In this document: piece after piece, positions 786-10,653 of the stretch
Numbering within the stretch: position 1 is the stretch's first letter
Layout of the letters: every line of letters begins with the position of its first letter
Source of the DNA: Advenella kashmirensis W13003
GTDB lineage: Bacteria > Pseudomonadota > Gammaproteobacteria > Burkholderiales > Burkholderiaceae_B
Direction of reading: 5' to 3'
DNA length: 64,000 nucleotides
Assembly (NCBI RefSeq): GCF_000506985.1
Contig: NZ_KI650982.1
Coordinates: forward strand, 62,001 to 126,000
The notes under the pieces: model-generated
The model's database searches: none
Seen by the model: only the letters and a program-made list of their open reading frames with translations
Told to the model about the DNA's origin: nothing
Made by a program: the position numbers and the translations under genes

Positions 786-1781
786 TTAATTCACTTGTAC
801 TTTTGCACTATGAACAACATCCGCCCATTTTTTGACCTCGGCCTGGAAAAAATCCTGAAACTGCGTGTCGGACGAGGCCACTGGCTCGGCGCCCACGCTA
901 CGCAGCGTCGCGCTGACCTGCGACGTTTTGACAGCATCTACTGCAGCCCGATTCAACGTGGACACGACAGATGCTGGCGTACCGGCAGGCACAAACAAAC
1001 CAAACCATGACGTTGCGTCGTAATCTGTCACTCCTTGCTCATCAAGCGTGGGAATATCGGGAGCAACGGTAGACCGCCTTTTACTGCTGACAGCCAGCGC
1101 ACGCAATTTTCCGGCCTTGATCAGCGGTAGCGTTGTAATGATGTTATCGAAAATCATCGGGACCTGGCCACCCAGAACATCGGCCATCGCGGGTGCAGCT
1201 CCCCGATATGGGACGTGCGTCAGTTTGATTCTCGCTCGGCTTGCAAGCAATTCGGTAAAAAGGTGAGCGCCGGATCCATTGCCGGCACTGGCATAATAAA
1301 TGCGATTTTCGGTATCCGTTTTTTTGCCGGCGCTTATCAAGTCCGCGACAGACTGAATTGAAGAGGATGGATTCACAACAAGCAAGAATGGTGCAGACGC
1401 CAGCTCGGACACAGGAACAAGGTCTTTTGAAGGATCATAACTGAGCGTCTTGTACAGGCTGCCATTAATTGCAAGTGAAATCGTGCCGAATAAAATGGTA
1501 TACCCGTCCGGAGCGGCTTTGGCTACGGTATCGGACGCGATATTGCTCGCAGCGCCCGGCTTGTTTTCAACTATGATCGGTTGCTTAAGTTGCAATGACA
1601 TTTTCTCCGCAACTGCACGGGCCGCCACGTCAGAAGCACCACCAGCCGGAAATCCCACAACAAGTCTTATTGGCCTGTCGGGAAATTCGGCCAGCGCCAA
1701 CCCAGGCGCAATCGCTCCAAGCGCCAACAAAATCGCTGTCAAGGAAAAAATCATACGGGATTTTTCTGTCATTAATTTCAT
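786..1781 (-). CDS. Bug/TctC-family periplasmic solute-binding protein
   Basis: This is a tripartite tricarboxylate-type binding protein. A signal peptide (hydrophobic run SLTAILLALGAIAPGLALA) precedes the mature start FPDRPIRLVVGFPAGGASD, the first ligand-binding loop of the family. VENKPGA, PDGYTILFG and VPYRGAAPA follow in the usual order, and the length is normal. I chose the ATG at 1781, which has a GGATGAG stretch upstream; a GTG at 1793 and an ATG at 1772 are alternatives. It faces another Bug gene across a promoter gap and is followed by the racemase-like gene. The ligand is probably a carboxylate, but it cannot be read from sequence. No TctA/TctB membrane partner is nearby. Confidence 0.93.
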   Translation of the reverse strand: MKLMTEKSRMIFSLTAILLALGAIAPGLALAEFPDRPIRLVVGFPAGGASDVAARAVAEKMSLQLKQPIIVENKPGAASNIASDTVAKAAPDGYTILFGTISLAINGSLYKTLSYDPSKDLVPVSELASAPFLLVVNPSSSIQSVADLISAGKKTDTENRIYYASAGNGSGAHLFTELLASRARIKLTHVPYRGAAPAMADVLGGQVPMIFDNIITTLPLIKAGKLRALAVSSKRRSTVAPDIPTLDEQGVTDYDATSWFGLFVPAGTPASVVSTLNRAAVDAVKTSQVSATLRSVGAEPVASSDTQFQDFFQAEVKKWADVVHSAKVQVN

Positions 1782-1871
1782 TGTCTCATCCACATTGTCT
1801 TATTCAAGATAACGGTAGCTCTCATTCTGCACTCTCCGGCGTAAATAGAACATAGAACAATATTGAAGAGA

Positions 1872-2155: not shown

Positions 2156-3163
2156 ATGAATACTTATTACTCGCTCACCAGCAACCGTGTACTTCTTGCT
2201 GCTGCGCTGGTCGCCGCGATGGGCGCCTATCCAGCCATCCCGGCTCACGCTGCCGATAGCGACACGCCATTCCCCAATCATGCCATCCACCTCATCGTAC
2301 CGTTCTCTGCAGGAGGTGGCACCGACATCCTGGCCCGCCTGTTCGCCAAATCCATTTCCCAGGACTTGGGTCAACCCGTCGTTGTGGACAATGTTGCCGG
2401 CGCGGGTGGAATCATCGGTGCCCAACAACTGGCGCGTGCCCCCGCTGATGGGTATACATTAATGTTCGGGACCCCGGGTACGATTCAAATCAATCCGGCG
2501 ATCAAGCCCGTACAGTATGATCCCTACAAAGACTTTGCTGCGGTTTCGCAATTTTCCGATAGCCCCATGGTATTGGTCGTGAATGCCAAAACTCCCTGGA
2601 AGTCTGTTTCTGACATCATCCAGGCCGCCCGGGCCAAACCGGCATCCATCAATTTCGGAAGCGCGGGGGTTGGCTCAATATCGCATCTTAGCGCTGAGAT
2701 GTTCGAGTTCTTAGCCGATGTCAAACTGACTCACGTTCCCTATCGTGGTACGGCGCCGGCAATCACCGATCTTCGTGCCGGTCTCTTGCAACTGCAGGTC
2801 GAAAACATGCCGGCTGTGTTCGAACTGATTAAAAACGGACAAGTGCGTGCGCTGGCTGTGGGCACCAAGGAACGTTCATCGTTTCTGCCGGATCTACCCA
2901 CCATGGAACAGGCCGGCGTACCAAACTATGTGTCGACATCCTGGACGGGACTATTCGCGCCGGCAGCCACTCCGCCCGGCGTGCTTAAAAGATTGGAACA
3001 AGCCGCGATGGCGGCAGCAAAAGAGCCGGATGTACTGAAGGCGCTAAAGGAACTGGGAGCACAGCCGGTGGGAAGCGACTCGGCGGCATTTGGTACAATG
3101 CTGAAAAACAACCAGCCGCTTATCGATAAAACAATCAAGGCCGCGGGTCTGGCGAAGAGCTGA
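2156..3163 (+). CDS. Bug/TctC-family periplasmic solute-binding protein
   Basis: The protein has 335 residues with a signal peptide ending near AIPAHA. The mature part carries FPNHAIHLIVPFSAGGGTD, VVDNVAGAGG, PADGYTLMFG and THVPYRGTAPA, the standard order of Bug motifs. The ATG at 2156 follows an AT-rich leader with a GGAGACAAGCC ribosome-binding site. The gene is divergent from the Bug gene at 786-1781 and is followed after 38 bases by a LysR gene, so expression is probably tied to that regulator. The ligand is not predictable. Confidence 0.94.
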   Translation: MNTYYSLTSNRVLLAAALVAAMGAYPAIPAHAADSDTPFPNHAIHLIVPFSAGGGTDILARLFAKSISQDLGQPVVVDNVAGAGGIIGAQQLARAPADGYTLMFGTPGTIQINPAIKPVQYDPYKDFAAVSQFSDSPMVLVVNAKTPWKSVSDIIQAARAKPASINFGSAGVGSISHLSAEMFEFLADVKLTHVPYRGTAPAITDLRAGLLQLQVENMPAVFELIKNGQVRALAVGTKERSSFLPDLPTMEQAGVPNYVSTSWTGLFAPAATPPGVLKRLEQAAMAAAKEPDVLKALKELGAQPVGSDSAAFGTMLKNNQPLIDKTIKAAGLAKS

Positions 3164-4987: not shown

Positions 4988-5476
4988 TCATCCAGCGTTC
5001 ACATGCGCAGTTGACGCCATCACCGACGAGCAAGCCAGCGCCGCCTCTTTGCCCTTGACCGTGAAATGCTCAAAGAAAAAGCGATGCTGTTTTTCATCTT
5101 CAAACAGTTCAATTGGCGTCAGTACGCAAGACAACACCGGTATGCGCGTTTCAAGTTGAACCTGCATCAGTCCCGAAATCACCGCCTGGGCGACAAACTC
5201 ATGGCGATAGAGGCCGCCGTTGACCACAAACCCTGCCGCAACCACCGCCGCGTAGCGTCCGCTTTCCGCCAGCAGCTTGGCGCGCAAGGGAATTTCGAAA
5301 GCACCCGGCACATTGATAACGTCCACATTGGACGGATCATGACCAAGGCGAGACATTTCCTGCAGAAACGACAGCCTTGCCTGTCCGACGATATCGCCGT
5401 GCCAGCCGGCCTCAATGAACGCAACACGGTCCGGCGTCTGCCCCGTTGCAGATTGATGAGTAGTTTTGGTAAGCAT
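4988..5476 (-). CDS. ribH: 6,7-dimethyl-8-ribityllumazine synthase, type II (RibH2-like)
   Basis: Lumazine synthase joins 5-amino-6-ribitylaminouracil to dihydroxybutanone phosphate in riboflavin synthesis. The protein has 162 residues and shows VPGAFEIPLRAKLLAESG, then VVAAGFVVNGGLYRHEFVAQAV, and GLMQVQLETRIPVLSCVLTP, the substrate-site segments of the family. The FVAQAV and FFFEHFTVKGKEAA wording is that of the RibH2 (decameric) type known from rhizobia and Brucella, not the classical RibH1. The ATG at 5476 follows an AGGAG site; an upstream in-frame start is not needed. No other rib gene is near. The leader carries an FMN riboswitch, and a hairpin covers the ribosome-binding site. Confidence 0.93.
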   Translation of the reverse strand: MLTKTTHQSATGQTPDRVAFIEAGWHGDIVGQARLSFLQEMSRLGHDPSNVDVINVPGAFEIPLRAKLLAESGRYAAVVAAGFVVNGGLYRHEFVAQAVISGLMQVQLETRIPVLSCVLTPIELFEDEKQHRFFFEHFTVKGKEAALACSSVMASTAHVNAG

Positions 5477-5485
5477 GATGAAACT

Positions 5486-5513
5486 CCTGTTTTCGTAAAC
5501 ATATAAAAACAGG
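5486..5513 (-). promoter_or_regulatory. Hairpin covering the ribH ribosome-binding site
   Basis: In the leader RNA, CCTGTTTT pairs with AAAACAGG across a 12-base loop. The right arm overlaps the AGGAG Shine-Dalgarno element placed just before the ribH ATG. This is the kind of sequestor expected for translational control by the upstream FMN riboswitch. The structure is read from sequence; its function is inferred. Confidence 0.6.
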
Positions 5514-5650
5514 GCATGGATAGACAGGACATGCCAGACGCACACGTCAAGGTTTTGCGGCCGGGCCGAAAACCATGAACAGACGGTTCAATGCGAACCG
5601 ACGCAACTGACGCGATCATCAGGCAGGCTGGGCCAGCCCAGCGATATCCC

Positions 5651-5811
5651 GCTCTCTCTTTATCCGGACTATGACCGTCGGCCCTGGAATCACACCAGGT
5701 CTGCTGACCTTGCCGGCGCATGTGAGAAATGGCACGCTGGCAAGCGCTCGCGGGCTAGGCGTCTGTTGACGCCATTACCGCCGGTGGGGAATTGCACCCC
5801 GCCCTGAGAAC
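5651..5811 (-). promoter_or_regulatory. FMN riboswitch (RFN element) upstream of ribH
   Basis: On the minus strand the conserved RFN blocks occur in order: CAGGGCGGGGTGCAATTCCC, then CACCGGCGGTAA, AGCCCGCGAGCG, a variable arm, then GATTCCAGGGCCGACGGT and ATAGTCCGGATAAAGAGAG. The closing stem P1 can form between GTTCTC (5806-5811) and GAGAGC (5651-5656). The element binds FMN and normally shuts off riboflavin genes. A 174-base linker separates it from the ribH start; the linker also contains a small stem of CGGTTC/GAACCG. No U-rich terminator is obvious, so translation control is more likely than termination. Confidence 0.96.
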
Positions 5812-5820
5812 GTGCGGCTT

Positions 5821-5840: not shown

Positions 5841-5874
5841 GGATCCGCAGCGGGAGTGTAACACAAGGTCACAG

Positions 5875-7164: not shown

Positions 7165-8148
7165 TCAATTAACCTGAATATTGGCTTCTTTCACGACCCG
7201 CGTCCATTTTTGAACCTGTTCGCTATAAAACGTGTTGAACTGCTCGACCGTCCCACCGCCAATGACAATTGCCATTTGCTGCAGCTTATGCTGTACGTCG
7301 GTGTCTTTCAGGGCAGTGTTGATATATCTGTTGAGCGCCAGAACCACCTCCGAAGGGGTCGCTTTGGGAACAGCGAAGCCCCACCAGACTTTAGCTTCGA
7401 GATCAGGGTAACCCAGCTCTTTGGCTGTTGGCACATCCGGCAATTGTGCGATGCGCTTATCGCTGTCGACCATGAGCGCGCGCAGCTTGTGGCCTTCCAC
7501 CTGGGGAACGGCTTCCAGAGGGTTCAGAAACATGAACGAGACCCGACCGGAAACGAGATCCAGTTTTGCCGGTGACCCGCCTTTGTATGGAACATGCAGC
7601 ATATCGGTATGGGTGGTGATTTTCAGCAGCTCAGAGGCCAGATGCGGTGCGCTGCCACTGCCCGAAGTTGCAAACGAAACGGCCCCCGGCTTTGCCTTGG
7701 CTGCATCCAGCAGGTCACTGAACGTCTTGAAAGGTGAATTCTGGCTGACCACAAGAATCAGAGGCGCATATCCGACATAGGCCACCGGTGCAAGATCATC
7801 AACTTCGTTAAAAGACCGTCTGGGATAGACGGCCGGATTGGTCGCCAGGCCGTTGGCGCCGATCAGTATGGTGTAGCCGTCCGCCGCAGCTCTGACCACT
7901 GCTTCCGTGCCGATATTGCCGTTAGCACCTGCTCTGTTTTCCACGATGACCGGTTTGCCGGTTTGCTCACTGATACTGCCGGCAAAAATCCGCCCGAGCG
8001 TATCGACGGCTCCCCCAGGGGGAAACGGAACGACCAGTGTAATTGGCTTTTCCGGATAGGCAGCCTGTGCCGGGATGGCAATAAACCACCAGAGCGCACC
8101 CAGGCTGCACGCCACCACACTGACGATTCTCAAAATGATGATATTCAT
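7165..8148 (-). CDS. Bug/TctC-family periplasmic solute-binding protein
   Basis: The protein has 327 residues with a signal peptide (SVVACSLGALWWFIAIPAQA) cleaved before AYPEKPITLVVPFPPGG. VENRAGANG, ADGYTILIG and LHVPYKGGSPA follow. The ATG is preceded by AGGAGACTAGCTC. It is the first gene of a leftward operon with the ligJ-like gene (stop to start 61 bases with the ATG at 7103). A perfect 18-bp inverted repeat lies 46 bases upstream of its start, a probable regulatory element. The ligand is unknown; a 4-oxalomesaconate-pathway acid is an inference from context. Confidence 0.93.
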   Translation of the reverse strand: MNIIILRIVSVVACSLGALWWFIAIPAQAAYPEKPITLVVPFPPGGAVDTLGRIFAGSISEQTGKPVIVENRAGANGNIGTEAVVRAAADGYTILIGANGLATNPAVYPRRSFNEVDDLAPVAYVGYAPLILVVSQNSPFKTFSDLLDAAKAKPGAVSFATSGSGSAPHLASELLKITTHTDMLHVPYKGGSPAKLDLVSGRVSFMFLNPLEAVPQVEGHKLRALMVDSDKRIAQLPDVPTAKELGYPDLEAKVWWGFAVPKATPSEVVLALNRYINTALKDTDVQHKLQQMAIVIGGGTVEQFNTFYSEQVQKWTRVVKEANIQVN

Positions 8149-8364: not shown

Positions 8365-9273
8365 TCAATCGCCCTTATAGGAGTGTGTCTCAACGATCTC
8401 CTGCAGTAATTCGCCCGTGCACTCAAGCAGTGCGGTGCGAGGGCGTTCCGCCGAGGTAGCCATTGCCAGCACGCTGATCATGTGAGGCGCCGTAATACGG
8501 CGCATAAGGAGGTGCTCGCGCGCGTCGCTGATGGCGACAGCATGCTTTGTCGCAATGGCGTATCCCTCGTTTTGGGAAACCAACTGCACGATGGTTGCCA
8601 CAGCATCAATTTCCAGTGCAATCGTCGGTTTGAGTGCCATGGTCGCCAGTCTGGTTTCAATGAGCATGCGCAATGGATGCGGGCGACGGGGAATAATAAG
8701 TGGCAAATCAGCAATCTTACGCAAGGCAATCGTGGGCCCGAGGCTGCGAGCATCAGATTTTTTGCGCGCCAGCAGAACAAGGGTATCTTCGCGCAAAGGT
8801 CGTATGTCCAGACTTGACGATGGAAGCGGATCATGTAAAAGCGCAATATCGATTCGTCCGGCCTGCAACCACTCATACAAATGAATGGTCAGTCCTTCGG
8901 TCACACACAAATGGGCGTTGGGGTATCGTCGCCTGAACGCCTGGATAAATGGAATGCTTAATGAACGGGCTGCAGCATAGGGCATCCCAAGCGTGACGCT
9001 TCCCAGCGGACAGTCCCTGGCATCCTCTACATCGTGACGCGCATGTTCAAATTGCATTTGAATTGTACGCCCATGCACCAACAGTCGTTTGCCTGCCTCT
9101 GTCAGGCTGACACCACGTCCATTTCGATAGAATAATGTCTGCCTGAGTTCCACCTCAAGACGCCTGACCTGGCGGCTCAGGGCTGACTGCCCGACGCCAA
9201 GCACCATCGCGGCCTGGGTAAAGCTGCCCAATTCTGCGACGCAGATAAAACACTCCAGTTGCCGCAAGTCCAT
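8365..9273 (-). CDS. LysR-family transcriptional regulator
   Basis: The protein has 302 residues. The start MDLRQLECFICVAELGSFTQAA and GVGQSALSRQVRRLEVEL give the LysR winged helix; an effector-binding domain with GSVTLGMPYAAARSL follows. It is divergent from the CoA-transferase operon beginning at 9427 (gap 153 bases) and is also upstream of the Bug-ligJ pair on the same strand. Its most likely target is the divergent operon, through the dyad at 9371-9385. The effector is unknown. Confidence 0.92.
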   Translation of the reverse strand: MDLRQLECFICVAELGSFTQAAMVLGVGQSALSRQVRRLEVELRQTLFYRNGRGVSLTEAGKRLLVHGRTIQMQFEHARHDVEDARDCPLGSVTLGMPYAAARSLSIPFIQAFRRRYPNAHLCVTEGLTIHLYEWLQAGRIDIALLHDPLPSSSLDIRPLREDTLVLLARKKSDARSLGPTIALRKIADLPLIIPRRPHPLRMLIETRLATMALKPTIALEIDAVATIVQLVSQNEGYAIATKHAVAISDAREHLLMRRITAPHMISVLAMATSAERPRTALLECTGELLQEIVETHSYKGD

Positions 9274-9370
9274 TCCATGCCCCCTTAGTGCGCAATGACA
9301 TGTGAATGGTTATAACACCAACATGAAATAACCGGTTAATACGTATTCAGTATCATACAATCTATTTTTA

Positions 9371-9385
9371 ATATTGGACTAATAT
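9371..9385. promoter_or_regulatory. LysR-type operator candidate upstream of CoA-transferase operon
   Basis: ATATT-GGACT-AATAT is a 15-base dyad holding the 13-mer TATT-N5-AATA, a T-N11-A box. It sits about 42 bases before the ATG at 9427, in the gap between the LysR gene and the operon. A wider GGTTAT...ATAACC repeat (9308-9333) lies further upstream in the same gap. Confidence 0.45.
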
Positions 9386-9426
9386 CATTCTTCTCTCATA
9401 TGCTGTCTGCAAACAGGAACAGGCAT

Positions 9427-10653
9427 ATGAATGACAGAAAACCACCCACCTCATCCGCGCTTTCAGGCATCAAAATCGTCGACTTGACGTCCGTCATTTT
9501 CGGCCCCTATGCCTCGCTGGTTCTGGCCGATTACGGAGCCGAGGTCATCAAGGTAGAATCGCTCCAGGGAGACTCTACAAGATACACGGGCCCCGCCTAC
9601 CAGGAAGGTTTGTCGGCCGTTTTTCTCGGCGCCAACAGAAACAAGAAAAGTATTGCGATTGACATCAAAACGCCGGAAGGACTGATGATCCTGCAACGAC
9701 TGCTGGAAGATGCAGATGTCTTTATGCACAGTATCAGACCCCAGAAATTAAAAAAGCTCGGACTGGATCCCGCTACGCTGACTCAACATGCGCCAGGACT
9801 GATCTATGCAGCGCTGCTTGGATATGGATCAAAGGGGAGCTATAGCGGCATGCCCGCATATGACGACATTATTCAGGGCTTAAGCGGCATTCCGGAACTG
9901 ATGCACAAGCAGTCCGGCGCAATACGCTACCTGCCCATTATTGCTGCCGATAAAACCTGCGCACTGACAGCGGCCCATGCAATTCTGGCCGCGCTCTTCC
10001 AGCGGGAACGGGATGGCCGGGGGCAGGTCGTCGAAGTCCCGATGTTCGAATCGATGGTCTCGTACGTGCTGCTTGAACATTTGTATGGCCGACATTTGGC
10101 AGACAAAGACCTCGACGCCGGTTATGTACGTGTGCTTTCAGAGTGGCGGCGTCCTTATCAGACGACCGATGGCCATATTTGCATGATGCCTTATACCGAT
10201 GAACATTGGCGGCGCTTTTTCACCTGTTCAGGAAACCCCGGACGGGCTGAAGACCCCAAATTCCAAAGCATTGCCGCACGTACTCAAAATATAAACCAAT
10301 TGTATGAGCTTACGGGCAGCATCGTAAAAGCACATTCGACCGCTCATTGGCTACAGTTTTGCCAGGAGCAGGAAATTCCGGCTGCCCGAGTCAATACGCT
10401 GAACGAGCTGGAGCGGGATCCGCATCTGCAGTCAGCCGGTTTCTTTTCTGAACTCATGGATCAGGGCCATCGATATCGTTTTACAGGCAATCCGGTTACG
10501 CTGTCCAACTCCAAGGTCACTGTCAAAATGCCGCCCCGGCTTGGTGAAAACACAGTTGAAATTCTCAGTGCACTTGGCTATTCAAATCAGAAAATCAATG
10601 ATCTATGCAGGCAACACGTTATCAAGGATGCCGGGCAAACCACATATGCATAA
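9427..10653 (+). CDS. Class III CoA-transferase (CaiB/BaiF/Frc family)
   Basis: The enzyme moves CoA between carboxylic acids by an Asp-linked anhydride. The sequence has LSGIKIVDLTSVIFGPYAS at the start, LADYGAEVIKVE, and the catalytic Asp in AYDDIIQ (about residue 146). The ATG at 9427 has AGGA 8-10 bases upstream and gives the usual length (408 residues); a start at 9400 would add nine residues. It opens a six-gene operon (13-base gap to the hot-dog gene, 9 bases between the dehydrogenases), so it likely activates the acid substrate degraded by the following enzymes. The CoA donor and acceptor are unknown. Confidence 0.93.
   Translation: MNDRKPPTSSALSGIKIVDLTSVIFGPYASLVLADYGAEVIKVESLQGDSTRYTGPAYQEGLSAVFLGANRNKKSIAIDIKTPEGLMILQRLLEDADVFMHSIRPQKLKKLGLDPATLTQHAPGLIYAALLGYGSKGSYSGMPAYDDIIQGLSGIPELMHKQSGAIRYLPIIAADKTCALTAAHAILAALFQRERDGRGQVVEVPMFESMVSYVLLEHLYGRHLADKDLDAGYVRVLSEWRRPYQTTDGHICMMPYTDEHWRRFFTCSGNPGRAEDPKFQSIAARTQNINQLYELTGSIVKAHSTAHWLQFCQEQEIPAARVNTLNELERDPHLQSAGFFSELMDQGHRYRFTGNPVTLSNSKVTVKMPPRLGENTVEILSALGYSNQKINDLCRQHVIKDAGQTTYA

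What the first reader, a model, noticed from the sequence alone, without database searches (positions are those of the whole stretch)
4988..5811. Isolated RibH2-type ribH under an FMN riboswitch with a hairpin over the start
A complete RFN element precedes a single ribH with no other riboflavin gene nearby, and CCTGTTTT/AAAACAGG covers AGGAG before the ATG. The enzyme wording is RibH2-type, usually a second copy elsewhere in the genome. An extra, FMN-controlled lumazine synthase suggests a supplementary flavin supply, perhaps for flavoenzymes of aromatic degradation, though that link is inference.
Basis: partly seen in the sequence, partly recalled or inferred. Interest (0 to 1): 0.72.

Follow-up and report, generated by a model that had tools for sequence, protein, structure and literature searches.

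The report
Second lumazine synthase under FMN riboswitch
A bacterium carries a spare copy of a vitamin B2-making enzyme behind an RNA switch that senses the vitamin's active form, an arrangement already known from many other bacteria.

Summary
A complete FMN riboswitch (RF00050, 101.9 bits, window 5815-5647 minus) precedes one gene, ribH2 (5476-4988), a type II lumazine synthase. It is the only FMN riboswitch found in the genome; the gene is the second of two ribH, the other lying beside ribBA on another contig. The hairpin CCTGTTTT/AAAACAGG pairs AGG of the Shine-Dalgarno AGGAG, beats shuffles (6 of 2000) and recurs with compensated changes.

The arrangement is known: RFN precedes ribH2 in 79 of 80 named-genome loci and 20 of 21 RibH2-bearing family genomes; papers describe it in Brucella, rhizobia and Pseudomonas syringae.

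Likely mechanism (switching inferred): with little FMN, the aptamer's CAGGGC pairs GCCCTG and frees the start site; with FMN bound, that strand returns to the Shine-Dalgarno hairpin.

The aromatic-degradation link is not supported: no orthologous catabolic neighbour is conserved even in congeners.

Side result: among 55 riboswitch-bearing genomes of 151 searched, the switch sits on ribB (35) or ribH2 (20), never both. An ordinary member of a known kind.

The parts
5855..5863 (-). Probable extended -10 promoter element TGTTACACT; TGCTACAAT in four close relatives, so a start of transcription near 5848 (inferred)
   Evidence: Alignment of the upstream region in 7 genomes; the simple sigma-70 scan found no promoter
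5647..5815 (-). FMN riboswitch aptamer (RFN element, RF00050)
   Evidence: cmscan 101.9 bits, E 1.6e-22, full model; only one found in the genome
5801..5806 (-). CAGGGC of the aptamer core (last base of P1 and the junction after it), proposed partner of the antisequestor
   Evidence: structure line; position; complementarity across relatives
5510..5515 (-). GCCCTG, proposed shared strand: pairs CAGGGC of the aptamer (ON) or, by its CCTG, the SD side (OFF)
   Evidence: 82 of 98 ribH2 leaders hold GCCCTG against 3.8 expected from shuffles
5506..5513 (-). 5' arm CCTGTTTT of the sequestor hairpin
5486..5493 (-). 3' arm AAAACAGG of the sequestor hairpin, covering AGG of the Shine-Dalgarno
   Evidence: hairpin region folds at -10.4 kcal/mol
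5484..5488 (-). Shine-Dalgarno AGGAG, 7 nt before the ATG
4988..5476 (-). ribH2, 6,7-dimethyl-8-ribityllumazine synthase type II, 162 aa
   Evidence: NF009084 216.6 bits, PF00885 117.4 bits, tree, PDB 2obx/1t13/1di0

Best explanation
A single-gene feedback unit: an FMN riboswitch controls translation of a spare type II lumazine synthase (RibH2), while the rest of the riboflavin pathway, with its own RibH1, runs without a riboswitch. When FMN is low the aptamer does not close; its core strand CAGGGC can then pair with GCCCTG about 290 nt downstream, the SD hairpin cannot form, and RibH2 is made, adding capacity at the lumazine step. When FMN is high the aptamer closes, GCCCTG is released and its CCTG pairs the CAGG of the Shine-Dalgarno side, shutting translation off. 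Shown here: the sequence parts, their conservation, the second gene copy, the absence of other FMN riboswitches in the genome. Inferred: FMN binding, the direction of switching, enzyme activity, and that the lumazine step gains from the extra copy.
For: RFN full-length, one per genome. RibH2 assignment (27 RibH2 and 9 RibH1 rows on two sides of a 100/100 branch). RFN upstream of ribH2 in 79 of 80 named loci and 20 of 21 family genomes that have RibH2. SD hairpin: 82 of 93 leaders with AGG near the start have a Watson-Crick stem of 6 or more that includes it, 2.5 expected; compensated G-C to A-U change (CCTATTT/AAATAGG) in 6 leaders L019, L032, L090, L099, L100, L101. Antisequestor: GCCCTG in 82 of 98 ribH2 leaders (3.8 expected) and in 32 of 35 ribB leaders of the family (2.7 expected); in Oxalicibacterium (L037, L050) the aptamer reads CGGGGC and the platform GCCCC. 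The unconstrained fold and the fold with CAGGGC-GCCCTG forced have -140.2 and -136.6 kcal/mol, and forcing raises the unpaired probability of the first two SD bases from 0.05 and 0.00 to 0.76 and 0.58. Published parallels: B. abortus RibH2 with RFN, both RibH active in vivo (PMC2828483, passages); S. meliloti ribH2 (PMC2573895, one table row).
Against: No FMN binding or expression data. 11 of the 93 leaders lack the SD stem (L005, L013, L022, L024, L051, L055, L067, L070, L075, L102, L104), and 5 more of the 98 leaders were left out of that count for having no AGG near the start. L013 has GCCCTA without a compensating change in the arm. Of 5 leaders with CGGGGC in the aptamer 2 show GCCCC, 1 keeps GCCCTG (G-U) and 2 have no GCCC[TC]. 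The 4 ribE leaders have no GCCCTG. The unconstrained fold does not reproduce the textbook aptamer, and with the antisequestor forced the third SD base stays mostly paired (unpaired 0.19) and the fourth becomes less free (0.85 to 0.31), so the fold supports opening of the SD only in part. Leaders are related, mostly Pseudomonas, so counts are not independent.
Confidence: 0.85

Rival explanations
1. RibH2 here is a supply line for flavoenzymes of the catabolic genes that surround it, and FMN control meets their demand.
For: The window holds acyl-CoA dehydrogenase-like and other catabolic genes by reading of the translations. PF03401-like receptor and CoA-transferase-like genes, of the same kinds but not close orthologues, also lie within about 10 kb of ribH2 in G071.
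Against: At over 45% identity no window gene but ribH2 lies near ribH2 in four loci of close relatives; the neighbour methyltransferase-like gene of these relatives is on contig C2 of this genome; only one RFN in the window, before ribH2; the RFN-ribH2 unit recurs in Pseudomonas, Collimonas and others, and no catabolic neighbour family was shared widely.
Confidence: 0.06
2. The switch acts mainly on transcription, by Rho-dependent termination in the untranslated leader when FMN is bound, with SD masking as the trigger.
For: The E. coli ribB switch acts at both levels (PMC9885008, passages, citing Pedrolli 2015). The leader is about 370 nt (start inferred); the terminator scan shows two sites, both upstream of the aptamer, none between aptamer and start.
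Against: Not testable from sequence; the conserved element is the SD hairpin itself.
Confidence: 0.25
3. RibH2 serves a special flavin pool (for secretion, or for a partner protein) rather than bulk supply.
For: In S. meliloti RibH1 and RibH2 both interact with the formamidase BrbF of a second riboflavin branch, and a role in flavin secretion is suggested (PMC9478397, passages). In Brucella RibH2, not RibH1, matters in the host (PMC2828483, passages).
Against: No widely shared neighbour suggests a partner. BrbF was not searched for in this genome.
Confidence: 0.12
4. The hairpin is a chance inverted repeat and the leader is no longer a working switch.
For: The hairpin is short and A-T rich in its inner half.
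Against: 6 of 2000 shuffles; identical arms in 7 aligned leaders while the middle of the leader drifts; compensated changes.
Confidence: 0.02

Closest known systems
RFN-controlled ribH2 of Brucella abortus and of rhizobia (Bonomi et al. 2010, PMC2828483; S. meliloti ribH2 in PMC2573895)
   Same: Stand-alone type II lumazine synthase gene, RFN upstream, second to a ribH1 in a riboflavin operon; the paper states this for Rhizobium, Sinorhizobium, Mesorhizobium, Bradyrhizobium, Pseudomonas syringae pv. tomato and others (passages read).
   Different: Different host lineage (an Advenella-like betaproteobacterium by the RibH2 tree, inference); platform with an SD hairpin next to the start, which the four Mesorhizobium leaders seen here lack.
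FMN riboswitch before stand-alone ribB (E. coli ribB; ribB of 35 genomes of this family)
   Same: Same aptamer family; GCCCTG downstream in 32 of the family's 35 ribB leaders; one FMN-controlled gene per genome in E. coli (PMC9885008, passages).
   Different: Target is ribH2, not ribB; here the SD hairpin uses the CCTG of the GCCCTG strand itself, while several of the family's ribB leaders show a separate GAAACG/CGTTTC pairing (8 of 35 printed, by eye).
RFN-ribH2-ribE unit of two relatives (G013, G080)
   Same: Same leader type and ribH2, same sequestor arms.
   Different: A riboflavin synthase gene follows ribH2 after 4 and 5 nt and seems to be that genome's only ribE (two Lum_binding matches per genome, the best one in this gene); in the window ribH2 is alone.

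Membership tests
FMN riboswitch (RF00050) | Covariance-model score above the curated gathering score over the full aptamer | tested here: met
   101.9 bits against 66.2, model 1-138 of 138
FMN riboswitch (RF00050) | Upstream of a riboflavin gene with an expression platform | tested here: met
   ribH2 follows; SD-sequestering hairpin here and in 82 of 93 leaders counted
FMN riboswitch (RF00050) | Binds FMN and changes expression | not testable with these tools
   Needs probing or reporters
RibH2 (type II lumazine synthase) | Sequence placement with type II and not type I enzymes | tested here: met
   NF009084 above its cut-off; 27 RibH2 and 9 RibH1 rows split by a 100/100 branch, with a warning of long branches; best PDB hits 2obx, 1t13, 1di0
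RibH2 (type II lumazine synthase) | Active-site tryptophan (W22 in Brucella RibH2, PMC2828483) | tested here: met
   The only Trp, W25, aligns with the only Trp of the matched stretch of 1t13; that this is the paper's W22 is inferred, since it is residue 20 in the chain's own count
RibH2 (type II lumazine synthase) | Decameric assembly | not tested
   No structure was predicted
RibH2 (type II lumazine synthase) | Second gene beside a ribH1 | tested here: met
   Two matches, C1 and C4
Flavin supply unit of a catabolic cluster | Conserved linkage with catabolic flavoenzyme genes | tested here: not met
   the last with limited sensitivity

The most novel reading that the evidence does not exclude
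In this bacterial family the FMN riboswitch is a one-valve system: each riboswitch-bearing genome places its switch either on an extra ribB or on ribH2 (35 and 20 of the 55 found among 151 genomes, never both; four of the ribH2 genomes have a further one on ribE); and in the ribH2 type the valve works by mimicry, one GCCCTG strand being contested by the aptamer's own CAGGGC and the look-alike CAGG of the Shine-Dalgarno.
Probability: 0.33. Interest if true: 0.35.

Novelty: new member of a known kind. Interest (0 to 1): 0.2.

Why it matters
It adds a clean betaproteobacterial example of a published arrangement. The comparative set gives a compact expression platform with covariation, useful for planning switch tests, and the either-ribB-or-ribH2 pattern raises a testable question: does feedback at either the ribB or the lumazine step suffice to govern flavin supply. 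It is unlikely to surprise a specialist.

Tried and rejected
Aromatic-degradation link: rejected for lack of conserved neighbours. One search is weak as a negative: its ORF picker took the longest ORFs of 100 aa or more and recovered ribH2 itself under 12 of 16 genus labels; it did join PF03401-like receptors of the window and of two loci of the genus, a permease-like gene of Collimonas and Glaciimonas, and a dehydrogenase-like gene of Pseudomonas and genus g14. A move of ribH2 as a lone cassette inside this genome: around C2:823358 only the methyltransferase-like gene is shared with the relatives, apart from a repeat-rich gene of G134, so no such claim is made. 'Riboswitch marks the second copy' as a general rule: it fits the 35 ribB genomes (all have 2 or more PF00926 matches, against 4 of the other 116) and ribH2, but not ribE, where the RFN stands before what seems the only ribE (G074, G097, G117, G136) or before ribH2 followed by it (G013, G080) (one gene per genome inferred from two Lum_binding matches). 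Promoter scan: no sigma-70 match; the -10 rests on an alignment of 7. Plasmids: 128 PLSDB records hold a relative, all under 60% identity, 91 of them Pantoea; not pursued.

Counts and rows dropped: the RFN family search used stricter filters that can lose weak matches, and the 151 genomes are a sample of the family; 99 of 101 loci had an RFN; L038 gave no start, leaving 98 leaders; one search used the 93 of them with AGG within 18 nt of the start. Tree: 45 loci were asked for and 36 rows found; L091, L092, L096, L105 and the named loci L007, L014, L022, L027, L078 (Pseudomonas and Marinobacterium) fell out because my motif missed them. RFN targets: best tblastn hits for 45 RFNs, position next to ribH2 for the other 14. 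The 2002 paper of Vitreschak et al., where by my recall the sequestor model for proteobacterial RFN leaders is described, is not held and was not read. No paper naming the one-valve pattern in this family was seen in the listings of searches, which cover open-licence papers only; the general form (single FMN-controlled gene, ribB or ribH2) is in PMC3766115 (passages). PMC4418817 and PMC10012899 were seen as passages.

Full report
What is there. On the minus strand, in reading order: a conserved extended -10 (TGTTACACT, 5863-5855), the RFN element (5815-5647), a platform of 170 nt, a Shine-Dalgarno AGGAG (5488-5484) and ribH2 (ATG 5476, end 4988). The RFN is a full-length RF00050 match and the only one in the genome. 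The protein is a lumazine synthase of the RibH2 kind: NF009084 216.6 bits over a cut-off of 160, PF00885, nearest solved chains 2obx, 1t13 and 1di0, and a place among 27 RibH2 rows against 9 RibH1 rows across a 100/100 branch. In that tree its nearest rows are three genomes of its own genus and Advenella sp. S44 (fork 94/82), so the genome is probably an Advenella or near it (inference).

The rest of the pathway. DMRL synthase has two matches, this one and ribH1 on contig C1, where ribBA, ribH1, a nusB-like and a thiL-like ORF follow one another (names by reading the translations; ribB part confirmed by PF00926). RibD and ribE are neighbours on C3, ribF is on C6. PF00926 has one match. None of these has an RFN. 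So the gene is extra and alone under FMN control.

The hairpin. CCTGTTTT (5513-5506) and AAAACAGG (5493-5486) form 8 Watson-Crick pairs around a 12-nt loop; the 3' arm takes AGG of the SD. In 2000 dinucleotide shuffles of the stretch before the SD 6 reach that stem. In seven aligned leaders (own, L004, L085-L089) the arms stay while the middle of the platform drifts. Of 98 leaders, 93 have AGG near the start; 82 of these have such a stem of 6 or more pairs, 2.5 expected. Six leaders (L019, L032, L090, L099, L100, L101) carry CCTATTT with AAATAGG, a change on both sides; Noviherbaspirillum has both forms (L032, L044), which suggests more than one event. L013 breaks the pattern. Eleven of the 93 have no such stem, among them four Mesorhizobium, three Marinobacterium and one Dongia locus, whose platforms share CCTGATTC instead.

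The switching strand. GCCCTG, overlapping the 5' arm by CCTG, is complementary to CAGGGC at the aptamer's entry. It is present in 82 of 98 ribH2 leaders (3.8 expected), in 32 of 35 ribB leaders (2.7 expected) and in 0 of 4 ribE leaders. Two Oxalicibacterium leaders change both sides (CGGGGC with GCCCC); three others with CGGGGC do not. The aptamer's CAGGGC and the SD's CAGG thus compete for the same strand. Energies of the two folds differ by 3.6 kcal/mol in a rough calculation, in which forcing the long-range pairing frees the first two SD bases but not the third. The model agrees with what is written about E. coli ribB: a sequester loop with FMN, an anti-sequester loop without (PMC9885008, passages).

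How common. Among 80 RibH2 loci of named genomes, 79 have an RFN upstream; Paraburkholderia tagetis (L066) does not. Among 151 genomes of the family, 21 have a RibH2 (over 130 bits), 20 with RFN upstream; G036 is the exception. Both exceptions sit on long branches, 0.60 and 0.95. Three of the seven genus members searched (G040, G115, G150) show neither RibH2 nor RFN.

One switch, two alternative sites. The 55 RFN-bearing genomes hold 59 RFNs: 35 before ribB, 20 before ribH2, 4 before ribE (with positions). No genome has RFN on both ribB and ribH2. All 35 RFN-ribB genomes have at least two PF00926 matches, 4 of the other 116 do (G032, G060, G063, G096). G036 has RFN-ribB and a RibH2 without RFN. 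Relatedness of these genomes was not corrected for. Sun et al. 2013 already state that most Proteobacteria have a single FMN-controlled biosynthesis gene, ribB or ribH2 (PMC3766115, passages), and the Aeromonas work shows the ribB form beside a ribBA operon (PMC10012899, passages).

Neighbourhood. Around ribH2 the window holds PF03401 receptors, a LysR regulator, an amidohydrolase and a carboxymuconolactone decarboxylase match below its cut-off (21.6 of 23 bits). No window gene but ribH2 is found at over 45% identity near ribH2 in four loci of close relatives; receptors of the same family do occur near it in the genus. In G013 and G080 the next gene is ribE, 4 and 5 nt on. The gene is best seen as a self-contained unit that keeps its switch in different surroundings.

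Verdict. Confirmed observation, correct reading of an extra lumazine synthase placed under an FMN riboswitch, unsupported catabolic link. Published for Brucella, rhizobia and P. syringae and listed for S. meliloti. New member of a known kind, low interest.

Noticed in passing
L163 (G013) 9218-10514 and L164 (G080) 9103-10466: RFN-ribH2-ribE unit in which ribE seems to be the genome's only riboflavin synthase gene, so there the switch would control an essential step.
   Followed up: partly
L115, L118, L120, L123 (G074, G097, G117, G136): Four genomes of one genus carry two FMN riboswitches, one before ribE and one before ribH2; the ribE leaders lack GCCCTG and probably use another platform.
   Followed up: partly
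L066 and L103: The two RibH2 genes without an RFN have long branches (0.60 and 0.95) in the tree, as if loss of the switch went with faster change; L104, which has an RFN, is also long (0.72).
   Followed up: no
window 786-1793, 2156-3163, 7165-8148 and further: Several tripartite tricarboxylate receptor genes in the window (PF03401 for the two tested; the others by reading), next to LysR regulators and CoA-linked catabolic genes.
   Followed up: no
G000:C1:1475706-1476266: A second RibD_C domain match (82.4 bits, 224-aa frame) besides ribD.
   Followed up: no
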